From: Terriglobia bacterium
GTDB lineage: Bacteria; Acidobacteriota; Terriglobia; Terriglobales; Acidobacteriaceae
Direction: 5' to 3'
Assembly: GCA_020073565.1 (NCBI GenBank)
Contig: JAIQEY010000001.1
Location: 171,434-235,433, forward strand
Length of the DNA stretch: 64,000 nucleotides
Shown: piece by piece, positions 27,685 through 33,646 of the stretch
Layout of the letters: the number at the start of each line of letters is the position of its first letter
How positions within the stretch are numbered: the first letter of the stretch is position 1
Program-made: the position numbers and the translations under genes
Notes under the pieces: generated by a model
The model's input: only the letters and a program-made list of their open reading frames with translations
Told to the model about the DNA's origin: nothing
Databases searched by the model: none

Positions 27685-28668
27685 CTACACTCTCTCCGCC
27701 GCGCGCATCTTCGCGCTGCGCGACCGCGGATTGCGATCGATCTCTTCTTCCGTGGCCGTCACCGGCTTTTTCGTCAGCAGCCGGTACAGCCCCTGCTTCA
27801 CGGCGTCTCGCAGCGCATCCTTGACGATCCTGTCTTCGAGCGAGTGAAAGCTGATCACCACCAGCCTTCCGCCCGGCTTCAGCACGCGAGGCGCCGCCGC
27901 CAGCAGTGCTTTCAGATCGTCCAGTTCATGGTTTACGAAGATTCGGAGAGCCTGAAAGGTACGGGTCGCCGGATGAATCCGCTCATGTTTCATTGGCCGG
28001 GCCGCGGCTGATATCACGTCCACGAGTTGCCTCGTAGTCTGTATCGGCCGCGACCGGACAATGGCTCTGGCGATTCTCCGCGACCTCCTTTCCTCACCGA
28101 ATTCGTAAATCACATCGGCCAGCTCACGCTCGTCGATGTGGTTTACCACTTGTTCGGCGGTCTCGCCCGACATCGGATTCATCCGCATGTCGAGCGGTCC
28201 TTCCGCCTGAAAACTGAATCCCCGCGCTGGGTCCTGGAGCTGCAAGCTGCTGACTCCGAGGTCCGCCAGAATCCCGTCGATGGTCGCTGGTCGTTGGTCG
28301 TTCGCAAGGTCTGCAAACGATCCATGCAGCAACGTGATCAGCGGCCAATCCGATCGTTGGTCGTCAGTCGCTAGTCGTTCGGAGACTGACTCCCCAACGA
28401 CCAACGACTGACGACTAACGACCGGCGCAAGATTCTTTTGCGCCACCGCCAGCGCCGCCGGATCCTTATCGAAGCCAATCAAATGTCCCGGTGCGCCGAG
28501 GCGTTTTGCGATTTCGCAGCTGTGCCCGCCCAGGCCCACCGTGGCATCCAGGTAAGTTCCGCCACGCTGTACGGCCAGAAAATCGATCGCTTCTTTTAAA
28601 AGAACTGGGACATGGCCAACCGCTCCATGCCCACCCCGCTCGGGGGTGTCTGTTGTGTCCGTGCGCAC
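27685..28668 (-). CDS. rsmH: 16S rRNA m4C1402 methyltransferase RsmH with a repeat-derived insert
   Basis: The protein has 327 residues. SAM-binding motif I is YLDATVGLGGHSCEIAKRLG, then GFDKDPAALAVAQKNL. The conserved LLHGSFADL, DGILADLGVSSLQLQDPARG and FSFQAEGPLDMRM follow, then ARAIVRSRP and FQALRIFVNHELDDL and PGGRLVVISFHSLEDRIVK. It methylates N4 of C1402 in 16S rRNA. Residues about 84-105 (VSRQSLVVGESVSERLATDD and QR) interrupt the normally short link between the NL and LLHG motifs. They are encoded by a 66-bp palindrome. The start GTG at 28668 shares a base with the mraZ stop (TAGTG). Confidence 0.96.
   Translation of the reverse strand: MRTDTTDTPERGGHGAVGHVPVLLKEAIDFLAVQRGGTYLDATVGLGGHSCEIAKRLGAPGHLIGFDKDPAALAVAQKNLAPVVSRQSLVVGESVSERLATDDQRSDWPLITLLHGSFADLANDQRPATIDGILADLGVSSLQLQDPARGFSFQAEGPLDMRMNPMSGETAEQVVNHIDERELADVIYEFGEERRSRRIARAIVRSRPIQTTRQLVDVISAAARPMKHERIHPATRTFQALRIFVNHELDDLKALLAAAPRVLKPGGRLVVISFHSLEDRIVKDALRDAVKQGLYRLLTKKPVTATEEEIDRNPRSRSAKMRAAERV
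28355..28420. repeat. 66-bp palindromic element inside the rsmH coding region
   Basis: Left arm 28355-28382 and right arm 28393-28420 are complementary at 24 of 28 positions around a 10-nt loop. Both are built of iterated CGTTGGT/CGTCAGT-type heptamers. The element is exactly 22 codons long, so its presence keeps the rsmH frame. A further single-arm fragment of the same heptamer (GGTCGCTGGTCGTTGGTCGT) occurs at 28282-28301, encoding the segment NDQRPAT. Confidence 0.8.
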
Positions 28669-29108
28669 TAGATGCCCAATTCGTCGAGCGTCTTAATGTC
28701 TTCATCCGTGAACGCTTGCTCTTTGATCTCCTTGCCGAACGCTTCCAGGTTCCGGACTTCCAGGTAGGTCAGATTGCCGAGCACTGCCACTTCGCCGCGA
28801 ATCTGCGCCGACTCGCGCAGGATTTGCGGGACCAGCAGGCGCCCCTGCCCGTCCATCTCCACGACCTGCCCGTAATAGTTCACGCGATTCAAGAACTTCT
28901 TCTTCGTGGGATTGAAGGTCGACAGCGATGCCAGCTTCGCCTCGATCCGCTCCCATTCCTCGAAGGGATATACCTGAGCAACATTTCCATCCAGACTTGT
29001 GATGTAGAATCGCTGCGCATATTTCTCGTCGATCACCCGCTTGAATTCGGCGGGGACCTTGAGACGCCCCTTTTCGTCCACGCGAGTTGGATGGTTGCCG
29101 CGAAACAT
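28668..29108 (-). CDS. mraZ: Transcriptional regulator MraZ
   Basis: The protein has 146 residues with two AbrB-like SpoVT units. The first has DEKGRLKVPAEFKRVI; the second has MDGQGRLLVPQILRESAQI. MraZ forms a ring that binds repeated boxes at its own promoter and usually represses the division cluster; it also binds nucleoid DNA. AGGA sits close to the ATG at 29108. It is the first gene of the cluster, about 200 nt downstream of a well-formed promoter carrying three 10-bp-spaced boxes. Its stop codon overlaps the rsmH start. Confidence 0.98.
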   Translation of the reverse strand: MFRGNHPTRVDEKGRLKVPAEFKRVIDEKYAQRFYITSLDGNVAQVYPFEEWERIEAKLASLSTFNPTKKKFLNRVNYYGQVVEMDGQGRLLVPQILRESAQIRGEVAVLGNLTYLEVRNLEAFGKEIKEQAFTDEDIKTLDELGI

Positions 29109-29290
29109 GCGTCCTGCTCTTGGCTGGGCGTCGTTTAGTTACGGCTGCTACCACAGCCAGCACGAGGGAGGTAAAAGCAGTCACAAGAACAGTGGATCCG
29201 GGTTCGTTGGGCCTCTTTTTGCGGGTGTCAGTCTCTGAAACCACTGGCGCCTCGAAACTTAGCGTTCTTGCCCACGACCTCTAATGCTTA

Positions 29291-29320
29291 CTCCACTTTC
29301 GACCACTTTTGTCCACATCC
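29291..29320 (-). promoter_or_regulatory. MraZ box: three GTGG units at 10-bp period
   Basis: On the transcribed strand GTGGACAAAA, GTGGTCGAAA, GTGGAGTAAG follow each other. In plus coordinates the CCAC cores are at 29293-29296, 29303-29306 and 29313-29316, a spacing of exactly one helical turn. This matches the known MraZ operator design (short G-rich boxes separated by about 5 bp). The array overlaps and immediately follows the -10 element, as expected for autorepression. Confidence 0.8.
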
Positions 29321-29344
29321 TACGCCTAACTGGTTTATTGTCAA
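29317..29344 (-). promoter_or_regulatory. Promoter of the division cluster
   Basis: The -35 TTGACA (29344-29339), a 16-bp spacer and -10 TAGGAT (29322-29317) face mraZ. The predicted start, about 29310, gives a 5' leader of about 200 nt. The first MraZ unit touches the -10 element. Confidence 0.75.
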
Positions 29345-29589
29345 CAGGAAAGTTTCAGGTTGAGACGACCGGGGAAAGCTCAAGCCGCAAAACACGATAT
29401 CTTGTAGTTAACCAACTCGATGACCACTAGGGGTTGCGTTTAGAAGATTGGTTCGACCTCACCTCTTCCGAACCGCATCTGACGCTTCACCCGGCCCGTC
29501 TGTGGAAATCCTCTCGTCGCGAAGAAAGTGCATCGCGCCCTGCATCCGGCTCATCCAAATTTTTGCTGCGATCAATCTGTTTTACGGAT

Positions 29590-29619
29590 TGGACACAGCG
29601 CTGCAAATCCGCGTAGAGT
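29590..29619 (+). promoter_or_regulatory. Candidate promoter of the sulfur-assimilation operon
   Basis: -35 TGGACA (29590-29595), 18-bp spacer, -10 TAGAGT (29614-29619). Predicted transcription start is near 29626, about 27 nt before the leader-peptide ATG. The hexamers are imperfect, so this is a moderate prediction based also on position. The 245 bp between it and the mraZ promoter hold nothing else I recognise. Confidence 0.4.
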
Positions 29620-29652
29620 AACGGGACGATGTTGGGGAATAAGGGCAACTCG

Positions 29653-29712
29653 ATGCTGTGCTGTTGTTGTTGCGCCAACGTGTGTTCTGGCGCAAGGGGG
29701 TTGCTGATCTAG
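29653..29712 (+). CDS. Cysteine-rich leader peptide of the sulfur operon
   Basis: The ORF has 19 codons, MLCCCCCANVCSGARGLLI, with AAGGG seven bases before the ATG. Cys occupies positions 3-7 and 11 (6 of 19). Five consecutive Cys codons (TGC TGT TGT TGT TGC at 29659-29673) are extremely unlikely by chance. Mixed codons argue for selection on amino acid, not on a DNA repeat. It lies upstream of genes for sulfate/sulfite reduction. The following RNA can form two exclusive folds, one a terminator. It therefore has all the features of an attenuation leader peptide sensing charged tRNA-Cys. The peptide itself probably has no other role. Confidence 0.82.
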   Translation: MLCCCCCANVCSGARGLLI

Positions 29713-29771
29713 TTTTCATTTAAAGTTTCGGCATACATCAAACCCATCGCCAGAAAAATGGCGGTGGGTTT
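29670..29771 (+). promoter_or_regulatory. Cysteine-responsive transcription attenuator (segments 1-4)
   Basis: Segment 1 (29670-29677, TTGCGCCA) overlaps the last Cys codon of the run. Segment 2 (29688-29702, TGGCGCAAGGGGGTT) pairs perfectly with segment 1 over 8 bp. Segment 2 can alternatively pair with segment 3 (29741-29752, AACCCATCGCCA) through TGGCG:CGCCA and GGGTT:AACCC. Segment 3 otherwise pairs with segment 4 (29759-29771) to form the terminator. A ribosome stalled on the Cys codons would mask segment 1, favour 2:3 and allow read-through. A moving ribosome allows 3:4 and termination. This is the trp/his-type attenuation logic applied to cysteine. Confidence 0.78.
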
Positions 29772-29779
29772 TTGTTTTT
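29740..29779 (+). terminator. Intrinsic terminator of the attenuator
   Basis: Stem AAACCCATCGCCA (29740-29752) with TGGCGGTGGGTTT (29759-29771), 13 pairs including one G-U, loop GAAAAA. It is followed by a run of T broken by a single G (29769-29779). The reductase ribosome binding site GGGGAA starts right after the T-run and its ATG is at 29790, so this terminator cannot belong to an upstream gene; it must be regulatory. Confidence 0.88.
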
Positions 29780-29789
29780 GGGGAACAAA

Positions 29790-31487
29790 ATGGCGACGAA
29801 AGAATCGAAAGCGCAACGCGTCGAGCGATTGAAGCGCGAGAAGAATCCGTGGGAGGCGCTGGAGGAAATTCGCGGATTCGCGCGCACCGGCTTCCCGGCA
29901 ATTCCTCCCGAATGGCTGGGCACGTATCTGCGCTGGTGGGGGGTGTATACCCAAGGCGATGGCGCTGGCGTGGTGGGCGGACAAAACGGCGAAGGCAAAG
30001 CCCTTCCCTACTTCATGGTTCGGATCCGCATTCCGAATGGCATTCTGCGCGCGGCGCAAGTCCGAGCCATTGCCGATCTCTCCAGGCGCTTCGGACGCGG
30101 GGTTGCCGACATCACTGTGCGGCAAAACATTCAGCTGCATTGGGTGACGCCCGAATCCCTCCCCGAAGTTCTCGAAACACTGGATCAGCACGGCCTCACC
30201 ACTTTGGGCGCGTGCGGCGATGTGGTCCGCAATATTACTGGATGCCCGGTGGCTGGCGTCGATGCCGACGAAATCTGCGACCCTTCTCCGTTGGCGCTGG
30301 AAGCTTCGCGCCTGCTTGCGGGCAATTCTGAGTTCTATAACCTGCCACGCAAGTTCAAAGTTTCGCTTACCGGCTGCCGCGCCTGGTGCTCGTATCCCGA
30401 GATCAATGACGTCGGCTTGACGGCGGTCACGCGCAGTGTTGGCGGACAACTCGAAACCGGCTTCTCACTGCGGGTCGGTGGTGGACTCTCGACCGATCCT
30501 CACCTAGCGGTCCGCCTCAACGCCTTCGTGCGCTGGCATCAGGTGGTGGACGTGATTCGCGGAGTCGCCGAGCTATTCCGCTCTGCAACGTCTCTCCGCG
30601 AACACCGCGAGCGCGCCCGCCTGAAGTTTCTGTTTCTGCGTGAAGGCTGGACTGCGGAGACTTTCCAGGGCGAACTCGAACGCGTGCTGGGCTTTCAGTT
30701 CGATCCCGCCGAACCAGAGCATCCTCCCCAGGACATCTATCGCGACCACGTCGGAATTCACCCGCAAAAACAAGAAGGCCTCTCCTTTGTGGGCGCGGCC
30801 GTTCTGCGGGGCCGCGTCAGTTGGGAACAGCTCCACGCGGCAGCCGAACTCTCGGAACGCTACGCCTCCGGAGATCTGCGAACCACCGCTATGCAGAACC
30901 TGCTGATCGTAAATGTGCTGTACCAGAAAGCCGACGCGCTTGCGAAGGAACTCGACGCCATCGGCTTCCCTGTTCAGGCCTCCCCGTTTGTGCGCGGCAC
31001 TATTGCGTGCAGCGGAACCGAATTCTGCAAGCTGGCAATCACGGAAACCAAGGGCTTCTCACGCTGGCTGACTGAAGAACTCGACGAGCGCCTCCCCGGT
31101 TTCGATCAGGACTTCAAGCTGCACGTAACGGGCTGCCCCAACAGTTGCGGCCAGCACTGGATCGCCGACATCGGTCTGGAAGGCAAGAAGCTTAAAGTCA
31201 ACGGCTCATTCGTGGACGCCTACTACTTCTCTGTAGGAGGTGCGGTCGGTTTGTTCCCGACCATTGCGCGCCCGGTTGGCTACCGCTGCACGGCGCAGCA
31301 GGTGCCTGATGCTATCGAGCGCCTCCTGCGTACCTACCGCGCAACCCGAGAGTCGGGCGAGAACCTACGCCGTTTCTTCGGACGGCACACTGACGCGGAA
31401 CTCCGGCAATTTCTGGCTGGTGAACAGGTCGAGCCCGTGGAACGCGATCGGCCGGCCGCTCCCGTGCCCCACGCGGTGGAGGGCTGA
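29790..31487 (+). CDS. Ferredoxin-type assimilatory sulfite (or nitrite) reductase
   Basis: The protein has 565 residues with the duplicated NiR/SiR architecture. The siroheme-[4Fe-4S] ligands are C407-SGTEF-C413 and C449-PNS-C453, followed by GQHWIADIGLEGKK. The first half has VADITVRQNIQLHWV and GCRAWCSYPEINDVG. It reduces sulfite to sulfide (six electrons, ferredoxin donor). Nitrite reductases share this fold, but the operon with APS reductase and the poly-Cys leader favour sulfite. Start ATG 29790 is used rather than TTG 29772, which lies inside the terminator T-run. The first gene of a four-gene operon including siroheme synthesis. Confidence 0.9.
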   Translation: MATKESKAQRVERLKREKNPWEALEEIRGFARTGFPAIPPEWLGTYLRWWGVYTQGDGAGVVGGQNGEGKALPYFMVRIRIPNGILRAAQVRAIADLSRRFGRGVADITVRQNIQLHWVTPESLPEVLETLDQHGLTTLGACGDVVRNITGCPVAGVDADEICDPSPLALEASRLLAGNSEFYNLPRKFKVSLTGCRAWCSYPEINDVGLTAVTRSVGGQLETGFSLRVGGGLSTDPHLAVRLNAFVRWHQVVDVIRGVAELFRSATSLREHRERARLKFLFLREGWTAETFQGELERVLGFQFDPAEPEHPPQDIYRDHVGIHPQKQEGLSFVGAAVLRGRVSWEQLHAAAELSERYASGDLRTTAMQNLLIVNVLYQKADALAKELDAIGFPVQASPFVRGTIACSGTEFCKLAITETKGFSRWLTEELDERLPGFDQDFKLHVTGCPNSCGQHWIADIGLEGKKLKVNGSFVDAYYFSVGGAVGLFPTIARPVGYRCTAQQVPDAIERLLRTYRATRESGENLRRFFGRHTDAELRQFLAGEQVEPVERDRPAAPVPHAVEG

Positions 31488-31489
31488 TC

Positions 31490-32113
31490 GTGAGCACGGC
31501 GCCTCTATTCCCGATGTTCCTAAAGCTCGAGGGACGCCCCTGCCTTGTCGTCGGGGCAGGCAGCATCGGGGAACCAAAGATTCACAGCCTCGTCGACTGC
31601 GGAGCGCACGTCCACGTCGTCGCTCCATTGGCAGCAGCCGCGGTCGCGGAGGCTGCGAGCCGGGGCACGCTCGCCTGGTCGCAAAGAGAGTTCGAGCCGT
31701 CTGATCTCGACGGCGTCTTTCTCGTGGTAGCCGCAACCTCGTCGGCAGAAGTAAATCACGCGATCTACCGGGAGGCGCAGCGGCGAGGCATTCTCTGCAA
31801 CGTCGTCGATGATCCGCCGCACTGCGATTTCTTCTATCCGGCGGTGGTTCGTCGCGGCCATTTCCAGATTGCAATTTCGACCAACGGACTCAGCCCTGCC
31901 CTCGCGCAGCGCGTCCGCAAGCAGTTCGAAGAAGAATTCCCGCCTATCTACGGCGTTTGGCTCGAAGAGCTGGGCAAGAAGCGGGCGGCGTTGTTCCAGA
32001 ACGGCTGTGAGCCTGAGCTGCGGCGCACATTGCTCCACCAGTTCGTCACGCCGGAAGCATTCGCCGAGTTCGAGCACGATCGGGTAGTTGAAACAGGAAA
32101 GGACCTTTTGTGA
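31490..32113 (+). CDS. Precorrin-2 dehydrogenase / sirohydrochlorin ferrochelatase-type protein (CysG N-domain)
   Basis: The protein has 207 residues. An NAD-binding fold begins MFLKLEGRPCLVVGAGSIGE, then VHVVAPLAAAAVAEAASRG, LVVAATSSAEVNHAIYREA, CNVVDDPPHCDFFYPAVVRRGH and FQIAISTNGLSPALAQRVRK. These are the blocks of the CysG/Met8/SirC family, which oxidises precorrin-2 and may insert iron to give siroheme, the cofactor of the reductase upstream. The dinucleotide motif is GAGSIGEPKI rather than the more usual GGGxVAxRK. The GTG start follows the reductase stop by two bases; its end overlaps SUMT by four bases (GTGA). Confidence 0.92.
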   Translation: MSTAPLFPMFLKLEGRPCLVVGAGSIGEPKIHSLVDCGAHVHVVAPLAAAAVAEAASRGTLAWSQREFEPSDLDGVFLVVAATSSAEVNHAIYREAQRRGILCNVVDDPPHCDFFYPAVVRRGHFQIAISTNGLSPALAQRVRKQFEEEFPPIYGVWLEELGKKRAALFQNGCEPELRRTLLHQFVTPEAFAEFEHDRVVETGKDLL

Positions 32114-32931
32114 ACGGTAAAGTCTATCTCGTTGGCGCGGGCCCCGGTGATCCGGAGTTGCTCACGCTGAAAGCACTTCGCATCCTCCGCCAGGCCGATG
32201 CAGTCTTGCACGACGACTTGGTCTCGCCTCAGATTCTGAGCCATGCGCCCAAGAAGGCTCGCATTTATGACGTAGGCAAGCGCTGCGGCCAGAAGAGCAC
32301 GCGCCAGGAGGCGATCCACTTCCTCATGATCGAACTCGCCCGGCAGGGCCTGCAGGTCGTGCGGCTCAAGGGCGGCGATCCGCTTGTCTTCGGCCGCGCT
32401 GGAGAAGAGATCCAGGCACTGCGGGAGGCTGACATCGAGTTCGAGGTCGTGCCCGGCGTAACCTCAGTCTTGGCCGCGGCCGCGGCCGCGGAAATCTCGC
32501 TGACCATGCGCGCAACCGCTTCGTCGCTGCTGATCATGACCGGCCGTTTTGCTGACGACCGGCCCCTTCCCGATCTCCGCTCCCTCGTCGCTTCGGGCAC
32601 AACCATCGCTCTGTACATGCCCGGCCCAGACGCGCATATGACGGTGAGGAAGCTCGCAGCGGCTGGCCTCACCTTACAAACACCTGTCGCGCTCGTGGCG
32701 CGCGCCAGCACCCCGGGACAACAAATGATCTTGACCACGTTAAAGGAGCTTCCCGAGATTTCCATGCAAGCCAAACCGTCCATCCTCATCATCGGGGACG
32801 TCGTCCGTCTCTCACAACCTGACCGGCTCCGGCTCGAAACGCTCTACGGCCAGCCAATTCCTCTGCCAGCACCCACACATCGCAAAGAACGCGATGTGTG
32901 GGGCACCCTGCAGGCGGTGAATCATGAGTGA
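32110..32931 (+). CDS. cobA: Uroporphyrinogen-III C-methyltransferase (SUMT)
   Basis: The protein has 273 residues in the class III methyltransferase fold. It contains VYLVGAGPGDPELLTLKALR, ADAVLHDDLVSPQIL, VGKRCGQKSTRQEAI, VRLKGGDPLVFGRAGEEIQAL and FEVVPGVTSVLAAAAAAEIS. It converts uroporphyrinogen III to precorrin-2 for siroheme. The segment that is normally near GIPLTHR reads EISLTMRATASS, and the preceding Ala run is encoded by iterated GCGGCC. The GTG start overlaps the previous gene by four bases, and the end overlaps cysH by eight. Together with the preceding gene it supplies the functions of a fused CysG. Confidence 0.95.
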   Translation: MNGKVYLVGAGPGDPELLTLKALRILRQADAVLHDDLVSPQILSHAPKKARIYDVGKRCGQKSTRQEAIHFLMIELARQGLQVVRLKGGDPLVFGRAGEEIQALREADIEFEVVPGVTSVLAAAAAAEISLTMRATASSLLIMTGRFADDRPLPDLRSLVASGTTIALYMPGPDAHMTVRKLAAAGLTLQTPVALVARASTPGQQMILTTLKELPEISMQAKPSILIIGDVVRLSQPDRLRLETLYGQPIPLPAPTHRKERDVWGTLQAVNHE

Positions 32932-33646
32932 GCGCAACTGGCTGCGAACCATGCAAGGTTTCGCCGAGTCCTGGACTGCCGAGGAACTGCTCGACTGGTC
33001 GCTGCACCGCTTCGGAAAGCGGATCGCGGTTGCGTCCGCGTTTGGCCCTGAAGGAATCGCCCTCATCGACATTGCGATGCGCTTGCGCACGGACGTCCGA
33101 GTATTCACGCTCGATACGGGCCTCTTCTTCCCCGAAACCTACGAACTCATGGCCAAGATCGAGCGCCGGTATGGCATTGAAGTCGAGCGCCTGAAACCCG
33201 CGTTAACGGTCGACGAGCAGAATCAGAAGCACGGGCCCTCGTTGTGGCTGAATAGCCCGGACCGCTGCTGCTACATGCGGAAGGTCGAACCGCTGCGGGC
33301 AAAGTTATCTACGCTGGAGGCATGGATTGCCGCCATCCGCCGCGATCAAACGCCGGATCGAGCTCATGCTCAAAAGGTGGATTGGGATGCGAAGTTTGGA
33401 CTGATCAAGATCAATCCGCTGTGCGACTGGACCAACGACATGGTCTGGGATTACTTGCGCAGCAACGATCTTCCGTACAACCCGCTGCATGACCGCGGCT
33501 ATCCCAGCATCGGCTGCCAACCGTGCACACGACCGGTCGAGAACGGCGATGATCCGCGCTCGGGACGGTGGGCAGGCTTCGCCAAAACAGAGTGCGGACT
33601 CCATCAGCGTCCGGAACCCGGCCCATTCACGGTGTTGCAGGATTGA
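32924..33646 (+). CDS. cysH: Adenylyl-sulfate (APS) reductase, thioredoxin-dependent
   Basis: The protein has 240 residues. The PP-loop-like region is AVASAFGPEGIALIDIA, followed by FTLDTGLFFPETYELM. C115-C116 and C198-QP-C201 are the four ligands of a [4Fe-4S] cluster typical of APS reductases rather than PAPS reductases. The catalytic Cys is in KTEC224GLH. The enzyme reduces APS to sulfite using thioredoxin, feeding the sulfite reductase three genes upstream. ATP sulfurylase and O-acetylserine sulfhydrylase genes are not in the window. It is the last gene of the attenuator-controlled operon. Confidence 0.95.
   Translation: MSERNWLRTMQGFAESWTAEELLDWSLHRFGKRIAVASAFGPEGIALIDIAMRLRTDVRVFTLDTGLFFPETYELMAKIERRYGIEVERLKPALTVDEQNQKHGPSLWLNSPDRCCYMRKVEPLRAKLSTLEAWIAAIRRDQTPDRAHAQKVDWDAKFGLIKINPLCDWTNDMVWDYLRSNDLPYNPLHDRGYPSIGCQPCTRPVENGDDPRSGRWAGFAKTECGLHQRPEPGPFTVLQD

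What the first reader, a model, noticed from the sequence alone, without database searches (positions are those of the whole stretch)
29653..29790. Poly-cysteine leader peptide and attenuator in front of a sulfite/APS-reductase operon
The sequence shows a 19-codon ORF with five consecutive Cys codons plus one more, using mixed TGC/TGT codons. Segment 1 (29670-29677) and segment 2 (29688-29702) pair. Segment 2 can instead pair with segment 3 (29741-29752), and segments 3 and 4 form a 13-bp terminator with a T-run ending just before the reductase ribosome binding site. Ribosome stalling on Cys codons would block segment 1 and free segment 2 to disrupt the terminator. This is the trp/his attenuation logic, applied to cysteine. 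Poly-Cys leaders are known in mycobacteria upstream of sulfur genes; I know of no description in Acidobacteriota. The operon (sulfite reductase, siroheme synthesis, APS reductase) makes exactly the product that would be sensed.
Basis: partly seen in the sequence, partly recalled or inferred. Interest (0 to 1): 0.95.

Follow-up and report, generated by a model that had tools for sequence, protein, structure and literature searches.

The report
Cysteine-codon transcription switch in Acidobacteriota
A short reading frame packed with cysteine codons, followed by a terminator hairpin, sits before the sulfite-reduction genes of a soil-type bacterium and recurs before many sulfur genes in related genomes; it likely acts as a switch that would keep these genes off unless cysteine runs short.

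Summary
A Cys5 leader ORF, a 13-bp intrinsic terminator and a competing antiterminator lie before a sulfite reductase-siroheme-cysH operon. A dense-Cys short ORF precedes 80 of 126 reductase homologues versus 20 of 3584 control windows.

A covariance model hits 147 of 399 genomes of the class. Of 109 fetched model hits analysed, 82 lie before sulfur genes (sulfite reductase, CysD, sulfurtransferases, siroheme synthase, sulfate/sulfonate binding proteins, TauE, cysteine synthase) with Cys-rich leaders, 15 before aspartokinase/homoserine dehydrogenase with Thr-rich leaders, and 4 before ilvB/ilvC with Val/Ile/Leu-rich leaders. Sensor codons thus match the pathway, which argues strongly for ribosome-mediated attenuation.

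Corrections: the leader probably starts at 29629 (27 codons) on a nearly leaderless transcript; pairing 1:2 is weak in the window; Cys codons are mostly TGT, rare elsewhere. Terminator covariation is strong, antiterminator covariation modest; in many same-family loci no 2:3 pairing was found.

Cys leaders are known in mycobacteria (translational) and before Rhodobacterales cysS (with terminator). I saw none described for Acidobacteriota in ten library searches. No expression data.

The parts
29590..29595 (+). predicted -35 hexamer TGGACA
   Evidence: many relatives have TTGAC at a similar distance from the leader ATG
29614..29619 (+). predicted -10 hexamer TAGAGT (spacer 18); predicted start of transcription about 29625-29627
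   Evidence: inferred spacing, no transcript data
29659..29673 (+). five consecutive Cys codons (TGC TGT TGT TGT TGC); a sixth at 29683-29685
29670..29676 (+). segment 1 (TTGCGCC), complementary to 29689-29695; weakly supported in the window
29686..29709 (+). segment 2; core CTGGCG 29687-29692, then GGGTT 29698-29702 and GCTGA 29703-29707
29740..29753 (+). segment 3 (AAACCCATCGCCAG): 5' arm of the terminator and partner of segment 2
29759..29771 (+). segment 4 (TGGCGGTGGGTTT): 3' arm of the terminator
29769..29779 (+). T-rich tract at the end of and after the terminator stem
29780..29783 (+). GGGG, likely ribosome binding site of the reductase gene
   Evidence: inference
29790..31487 (+). NirA-like siroheme sulfite reductase gene (closest PDB 1zj8)
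31490..32113 (+). siroheme synthase N-terminal (precorrin-2 dehydrogenase-like) gene
32110..32931 (+). uroporphyrinogen-III C-methyltransferase gene
32924..33646 (+). cysH (APS/PAPS reductase) gene

Best explanation
The element is a leader ORF with five consecutive Cys codons followed by mutually exclusive RNA complementarities ending in a 13-bp terminator-type hairpin, and it likely works as a cysteine-responsive, ribosome-mediated transcription attenuator of the sulfite reductase-siroheme-cysH operon. Predicted sequence of events: transcription starts 2-4 nt before ATG 29629, so a ribosome would load at the very 5' end. When Cys-tRNA is plentiful it would run to the stop codon at 29710 and cover the 3' half of segment 2, so the antiterminator 2:3 would not form, segment 3 would pair with 4, and RNA polymerase would stop near 29775. 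When Cys-tRNA is scarce the ribosome would stall on the Cys codons (mostly TGT, rare in the genes), leave segment 2 free, and 2:3 would form before segment 4 is made, letting polymerase read on. Shown: the ORF, the complementarities, their conservation in relatives and the match of leader codons to pathway. Inferred: promoter, translation, stalling and termination. The element belongs to a sequence family, found mainly in the host's class (named relatives: Terriglobia), whose members carry Cys, Thr or Val/Ile/Leu codons before the matching genes.
For: Leader, terminator and 2:3 complementarity recur in relatives; in the window and L002-L051 the 2:3 duplex is at or below 5 of 100 shuffles in 26 of 41 loci with a terminator (recounted). 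Terminator: on A1 (unfitted, 39 sequences) 97% of cells paired, two-sided changes in 5 of 12 pairs; on A2 (88 sequences, fitted to this helix, so leaning to it) 10 of 12 pairs. Antiterminator 2:3 on A2 (not fitted to it): 27 cells with two-sided change against 15.8 +- 3.2 in shuffles, 2 of 500 as high; score 0.098 against 0.076, 1 of 500. Folding with ribosome positions masked: segment 3 pairs upstream with mean 0.67 when stalled, 0.21 with the ribosome at the stop, stalled > stop in 38 of 38 loci; window 0.66 versus 0.25. Codons follow the pathway (longest ORF ending at the expected place): sulfur genes (n 82) Cys 16%, Thr 5%; aspartokinase/homoserine dehydrogenase (n 15) Thr 17%, Cys 2%; ilvB/ilvC (n 4) V+I+L 34%, Cys 0.8%. 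TGT share of Cys codons: 350 of 549 in 91 leaders, 98 of 897 in the reductase genes. L010 and L026 read the CTGGCG motif in another frame, and L004 is frame-shifted just behind it, yet the RNA motif stays.
Against: No expression or ribosome data. On A1 the antiterminator core is invariant: no two-sided change, and pairing no better than shuffles (91.2% against 91.0%). On A2 the number of pairs with two-sided change (5 against 4.0) and of pair types is not in excess, and the structure slid by one column still has 25 two-sided cells. The 2:3 duplex beats 95% of shuffles in 34 of 79 loci overall and in only 3 of 24 of L121-L152 without L127, which have leader and terminator. Pairing 1:2 of the window is not significant (39 of 200) and the window's segment 3 is paired equally with a stalled and with no ribosome (0.66 both). 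14 of 93 leader loci had no terminator by my scan. Six Cys leaders among the 109 places lie before outer-membrane or porin genes, not an obvious cysteine pathway. Model R1 contains the Cys run, so its hits are biased to Cys leaders. The reductase family also includes nitrite reductases; scores are below NCBIfam cut-offs.
Confidence: 0.9

Rival explanations
1. Translational attenuation as reported for mycobacteria: the stalled ribosome exposes the ribosome binding site of the downstream gene; the hairpin acts mainly by hiding it.
For: Poly-Cys short ORFs, leaderless in mycobacteria and acting on translation, are cited in PMC13236596 and PMC9031893 (passages); here the terminator stem ends 8 nt before GGGG, and the fold of the full leader shows a second small hairpin that pairs part of GGGG.
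Against: A GC-rich stem with a T tract is conserved and covaries, and its 3' end lies 10-124 nt before the estimated gene start in other loci (recounted), often too far to hide it. The terminator stem itself does not include GGGG.
Confidence: 0.05
2. The Cys-rich peptide is itself functional (metal, redox or sulfide sensing) and acts in trans or as an arrest peptide.
For: Cys clusters bind metals in general (established knowledge); some leader peptides act in trans (PMC7298713, start of abstract in the listing).
Against: The Cys codons and the RNA segment are what is conserved; frame-shifted tails occur; Thr and Val/Ile/Leu leaders sit on the same RNA before matching pathways.
Confidence: 0.03
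3. Plain terminator of a short upstream transcript with a chance Cys ORF; no regulation.
For: In the window alone the 1:2 pairing is weak, and one terminator-like site is expected by chance in 700 bases.
Against: Leader, terminator and position recur before sulfur genes of many genomes; codon-pathway match.
Confidence: 0.02

Closest known systems
trp/his/thr/leu-type ribosome-mediated transcription attenuators of Proteobacteria (recalled)
   Same: leader ORF rich in codons for the pathway product, mutually exclusive pairings, intrinsic terminator before the first gene
   Different: senses cysteine; predicted nearly leaderless transcript; other phylum; one related RNA carries Cys, Thr or Val/Ile/Leu codons
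Mycobacterial polycysteine leaderless short ORFs (Canestrari et al. 2020, not held; seen only as cited in PMC13236596, PMC9094748, PMC9031893)
   Same: Cys-codon-rich leaderless short ORFs before cysteine-biosynthesis genes
   Different: those are cited as translational attenuation, and no conserved terminator hairpin was found in mycobacterial cys leaders (PMC1262725 section 6); here an intrinsic terminator is conserved
uORFC-8-2 motif before cysS in Rhodobacterales (PMC8632094, passages)
   Same: Cys codons in a short ORF plus a terminator-type stem, predicted attenuation
   Different: two tandem Cys codons, only before cysS, alpha-Proteobacteria; sequence kinship not tested here
Leaderless leader peptides of Streptomyces lividans, such as TrpL1, LeuL2 and IlvL (PMC8079986, passages)
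   Same: leaderless leader ORF followed by hairpin and uridine tract, transcription attenuation
   Different: no cysteine leader among the eight listed there; Actinobacteria
Cys leaders of Actinobacteria (PMC1262725, section 6 read)
   Same: Cys-run leader ORFs before cys operons and cbs
   Different: no conserved terminators reported for Mycobacterium; mode of regulation called unknown there

Membership tests
ribosome-mediated transcription attenuator | short ORF with codons for the end product of the downstream genes | tested here: met
ribosome-mediated transcription attenuator | intrinsic terminator between leader and first gene | tested here: met
   sequence and covariation; termination itself not measured
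ribosome-mediated transcription attenuator | antiterminator that excludes the terminator | tested here: met
   complementarity and folding; modest covariation; none on A1
ribosome-mediated transcription attenuator | 1:2 pairing (anti-antiterminator) | tested here: inconclusive
   49 of 112 leaders at 5% of shuffles, window 39 of 200
ribosome-mediated transcription attenuator | translation of the leader and amino-acid-dependent read-through | not testable with these tools
   no expression data
mycobacterial polycysteine leaderless attenuator | poly-Cys short ORF before cys genes | tested here: met
mycobacterial polycysteine leaderless attenuator | leaderless transcript | tested here: inconclusive
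   TTGAC 34-46 nt before the chosen ATG in 69 of 91 leaders, window TGGACA; start sites not measured
mycobacterial polycysteine leaderless attenuator | no terminator, control of translation | tested here: not met
   conserved terminator-type hairpin
uORFC-8-2 | upstream of cysS in Rhodobacterales | tested here: not met
   other gene and phylum
T-box or riboswitch families of Rfam 15 | match to an Rfam model | tested here: not met
   no match up to E 1 in 29000-30200

The most novel reading that the evidence does not exclude
Class Terriglobia (Acidobacteriota) uses one modular, nearly leaderless attenuator chassis as a global regulator: sensor codons are swapped (Cys, Thr, Val/Ile/Leu) on the same antiterminator-terminator RNA, so that sulfate and sulfonate uptake, sulfate activation, sulfite reduction, siroheme, sulfurtransferases and cysteine synthase form a single cysteine-tRNA-sensing regulon.
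Probability: 0.7. Interest if true: 0.8.

Novelty: new variant of a known kind. Interest (0 to 1): 0.74.

Why it matters
Acidobacteriota are abundant soil bacteria, and a 2010 survey found that almost none of their predicted attenuators had an associated function (PMC2965389, passages). If right, much of their sulfur assimilation would be controlled by charged Cys-tRNA read out on a 5' leader, with up to six model matches per genome, and the sensed amino acid could be read off the leader codons. Comparing Cys, Thr and Val/Ile/Leu versions of one RNA would show how attenuators change specificity in evolution, and gives a ready sensor design.

Tried and rejected
Rfam scan of the region: no match. 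RNAalifold on the whole alignment A1 gave the terminator and a pairing inside the Cys run that I do not trust, so I tested named helices instead. My terminator scan picked a hairpin upstream of the leader in L005 and found none in L021, L046, L048 and L050. My automatic leader choice took a wrong frame in L252 and L253, counted L276 as Cys although it lies before homoserine dehydrogenase, and counted one place twice (L215 = L239). For minus-strand loci among L114-L139 the first scan read the wrong strand and was redone. Rejected: riboswitch or T-box, chance Cys run, functional Cys peptide. The 2:3 pairing was not found in most of L121-L152; I did not resolve what replaces it.

Rows dropped: a skip list of 12 loci (too short, Ns, duplicate, or no credible leader); A1 holds 39 of the 42 stretches (L015, L031, L051 left out as divergent); A2 leaves out L200 and L239; A3 holds 58 of the 88 stretches; one search tested 112 of 115 leaders given to it, and its input left out further model hits without a promoter call or with fewer than 3 Cys, and a few already among the first set. 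Of model R1's listed hits I fetched 60 of my own choice beside the 30 best; of model R2's I analysed 20 of my own choice, and the 30 that fetched by itself were not analysed. Downstream genes were named by HMM for cluster representatives and by BLAST to seeds for the rest.

Full report
Observation. The frame is open to an ATG at 29629, eight codons upstream. The four genes behind it are contiguous or overlap by a few bases and code for a NirA-like reductase, a siroheme synthase N-terminal protein, a uroporphyrinogen-III methyltransferase and CysH. The closest solved structure is 1zj8, titled a NirA; I recall it as a M. tuberculosis sulfite reductase, and the two residues that I recall as its Tyr-Cys crosslink appear conserved in the alignment.

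Not chance. In the own genome the pattern of four Cys codons occurs 95 times on both strands, against 49 for the reversed control. I held 91 of the 95 places. Of 41 in-frame runs of at least four Cys with a start codon there, two have a terminator-like hairpin within 160 nt: the window's (13 bp) and a weaker one in L170 (8 bp). Among 126 reductase homologues with enough upstream sequence, 80 have an ATG-started short ORF with at least 4 Cys in 14 codons; 20 of 3584 control windows of the same loci do. Of 80 loci found by protein search, 47 have a run of at least 3 Cys upstream (2 have too little upstream sequence); none of the 14 titled Rokubacteria or Methylomirabilota do. L137 and L148 (genus g9) lack it: the reductase there appears to follow another coding sequence closely (read by eye).

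Leader start and promoter. Choosing the in-frame ATG with the best promoter match, 69 of 91 leaders have TTGAC 34-46 nt before the ATG, and in 60 of these 69 the -10 box ends 6-10 nt before it. Because the ATG was chosen by promoter score, the cleaner number is the first-picked ATG: 53 of 86 have TTGAC 33-42 nt upstream against 127 of 9551 for any ATG. The window has TGGACA-18-TAGAGT with 9 nt to ATG 29629 and is not among the 69. Start sites are inferred. Leaderless genes were estimated at 13.3% on average in three Acidobacteria genomes (PMC3160421, passages).

RNA. Alignment A1 (39 sequences): terminator 97.0% of cells paired, two-sided change in 5 of 12 pairs, 0 of 500 shuffles as good. Antiterminator 91.2% of cells paired, but its core does not vary, so there is no two-sided change and no excess over shuffles; the core is shared by competing helices. 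Alignment A2 (88 covariance hits fitted to the terminator only): terminator 96.8% of cells, 10 of 12 pairs with two-sided change, on an alignment that leans to it; antiterminator 82.7% of cells against 81.2% in shuffles (2 of 500), 27 two-sided cells against 15.8 (2 of 500), score 0.098 against 0.076 (1 of 500), but the number of pairs with two-sided change is not in excess (5 against 4.0) and the structure slid by one column keeps 25 such cells with 56.8% paired. As single duplexes, 2:3 is at or below 5 of 100 shuffles in 34 of 79 loci: 26 of 41 for the window and L002-L051, 3 of 24 for L121-L152 without L127. Pairing 1:2 beats 95% of shuffles in 49 of 112 leaders; segment 1 usually lies 10-36 nt before the first Cys pair and resembles segment 3. 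In the window it lies at the end of the Cys run and is not significant (39 of 200).

Ribosome positions. Folding the free RNA up to segment 3 with the ribosome at the Cys run, at the stop, or absent gave mean upstream pairing of segment 3 of 0.67, 0.21 and 0.47 in 38 loci; stalled exceeds stop in 38 of 38 and absent in 33 of 38; the window has 0.66, 0.25 and 0.66. Window energies: antiterminator region -22.3, terminator -22.7 kcal/mol. So the on/off contrast comes from the ribosome's place, and an untranslated leader is not clearly off in the window.

Codons. Leaders use TGT for 350 of 549 Cys codons, the reductase genes for 98 of 897, nine window genes for 3 of 39. Rare codons for the sensed amino acid are known from other attenuators (recalled).

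Regulon. Model R1 has a match at E <= 0.1 in 147 of 399 genomes of the class, and at E <= 0.001 in 16 of 396 drawn from the phylum, 9 of them in the own family. I fetched 90 hits (30 best by the tool, 60 picked by me; 89 distinct): 86 of 90 have at least 3 Cys in 14 codons of a short ORF, 75 at least 4; R1 contains the Cys run and so favours such hits. First downstream ORFs cluster (89 rows, the duplicate included; none for L250) as 23 sulfite reductase-like, 18 two-domain rhodanese, 15 CysD, 5 rhodanese, 4 siroheme synthase, 4 TauE, 3 SsuA-like, 4 outer-membrane, 3 porin-like, 4 aspartokinase, and single DsrC, solute-binding, class-V aminotransferase, homoserine dehydrogenase and two unnamed proteins (representatives named). 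In another family (f84), two Cys leaders with terminators precede a cysteine-synthase-like ORF (L288, L290, read by eye).

Swapped codons. The four aspartokinase loci among the R1 hits have Thr/Ile leaders. A second model of segments 2-4 (R2) hit 71 of 120 genomes of the family. Of the 20 R2 hits that I chose and fetched, 10 lie before aspartokinase or homoserine dehydrogenase with Thr-containing leaders, 4 before ilvB or ilvC with Val/Ile/Leu-containing leaders, one of them in the window's own genome (G000:C60:9274-9376), and 6 before sulfur genes with Cys leaders, among them a cysK above its curated cut-off. Over 109 places the longest ORF ending at the expected place has Cys 16% before sulfur genes (82), Cys 18% before outer-membrane and porin genes (6), Thr 17% and Cys 2% before aspartokinase/homoserine dehydrogenase (15), V+I+L 34% and Cys 0.8% before ilv genes (4), with 2 unassigned. 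V+I+L is 17-21% in the other classes. I consider this match the strongest argument for ribosome-mediated attenuation.

Known work. Searches: (ten, open-licence library only; long lists were cut at 12-20 rows). The nearest are mycobacterial poly-Cys leaderless ORFs (seen as cited), Actinobacterial Cys leaders without conserved terminators (PMC1262725), leaderless Trp, Leu and Ilv leaders with terminators in S. lividans (PMC8079986, passages) and uORFC-8-2 before cysS (PMC8632094, passages). In what I saw of these searches there was no Cys attenuator of Acidobacteriota; subscription papers and supplements were not searched.

Verdict. A real, conserved element; high confidence in the kind of mechanism and no expression proof; new in phylum, breadth and modular design rather than in principle.

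Noticed in passing
L321 = G000:C60:8900-11300 (own genome; hit C60:9274-9376): Same attenuator RNA with a Val/Leu/Ile-containing leader (MTDGRNRHRVSLKIPGVRVSLLRRGVGEAVS) before ilvB.
   Followed up: partly
L270, L271, L272, L244, L323, L325-L328, L330, L333, L336, L337: Thr/Ile/Met-containing leaders with the same segment 2-4 RNA before aspartokinase; L276 and L334 before homoserine dehydrogenase.
   Followed up: partly
L288, L290 (family f84, same phylum): Cys leaders plus terminator before a cysteine-synthase-like ORF outside the window's family (read by eye).
   Followed up: partly
L121-L152 (mostly same family f1): Cys leaders, often with CC-x-CC spacing, and a short GCCCAC...GTGGGC terminator, but 2:3 pairing supported in only 3 of 24 (L127 left out); the antiterminator may have been replaced.
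   Followed up: partly
L137, L148 (G313, G179): Orthologous reductase without a Cys leader, apparently close behind another coding sequence.
   Followed up: no
L204, L206, L207, L238, L215, L259: Cys attenuators before outer-membrane beta-barrel or porin genes, which may hint at a role in uptake of a sulfur compound.
   Followed up: no
L156 (G395, family f22): Cys-rich ORF with a different strong terminator before a distant reductase homologue.
   Followed up: no
window 28668-29108: The gene upstream of the attenuator, on the minus strand, is mraZ-like; by their sequence the ORFs further upstream look like a division/cell-wall cluster (not searched).
   Followed up: no
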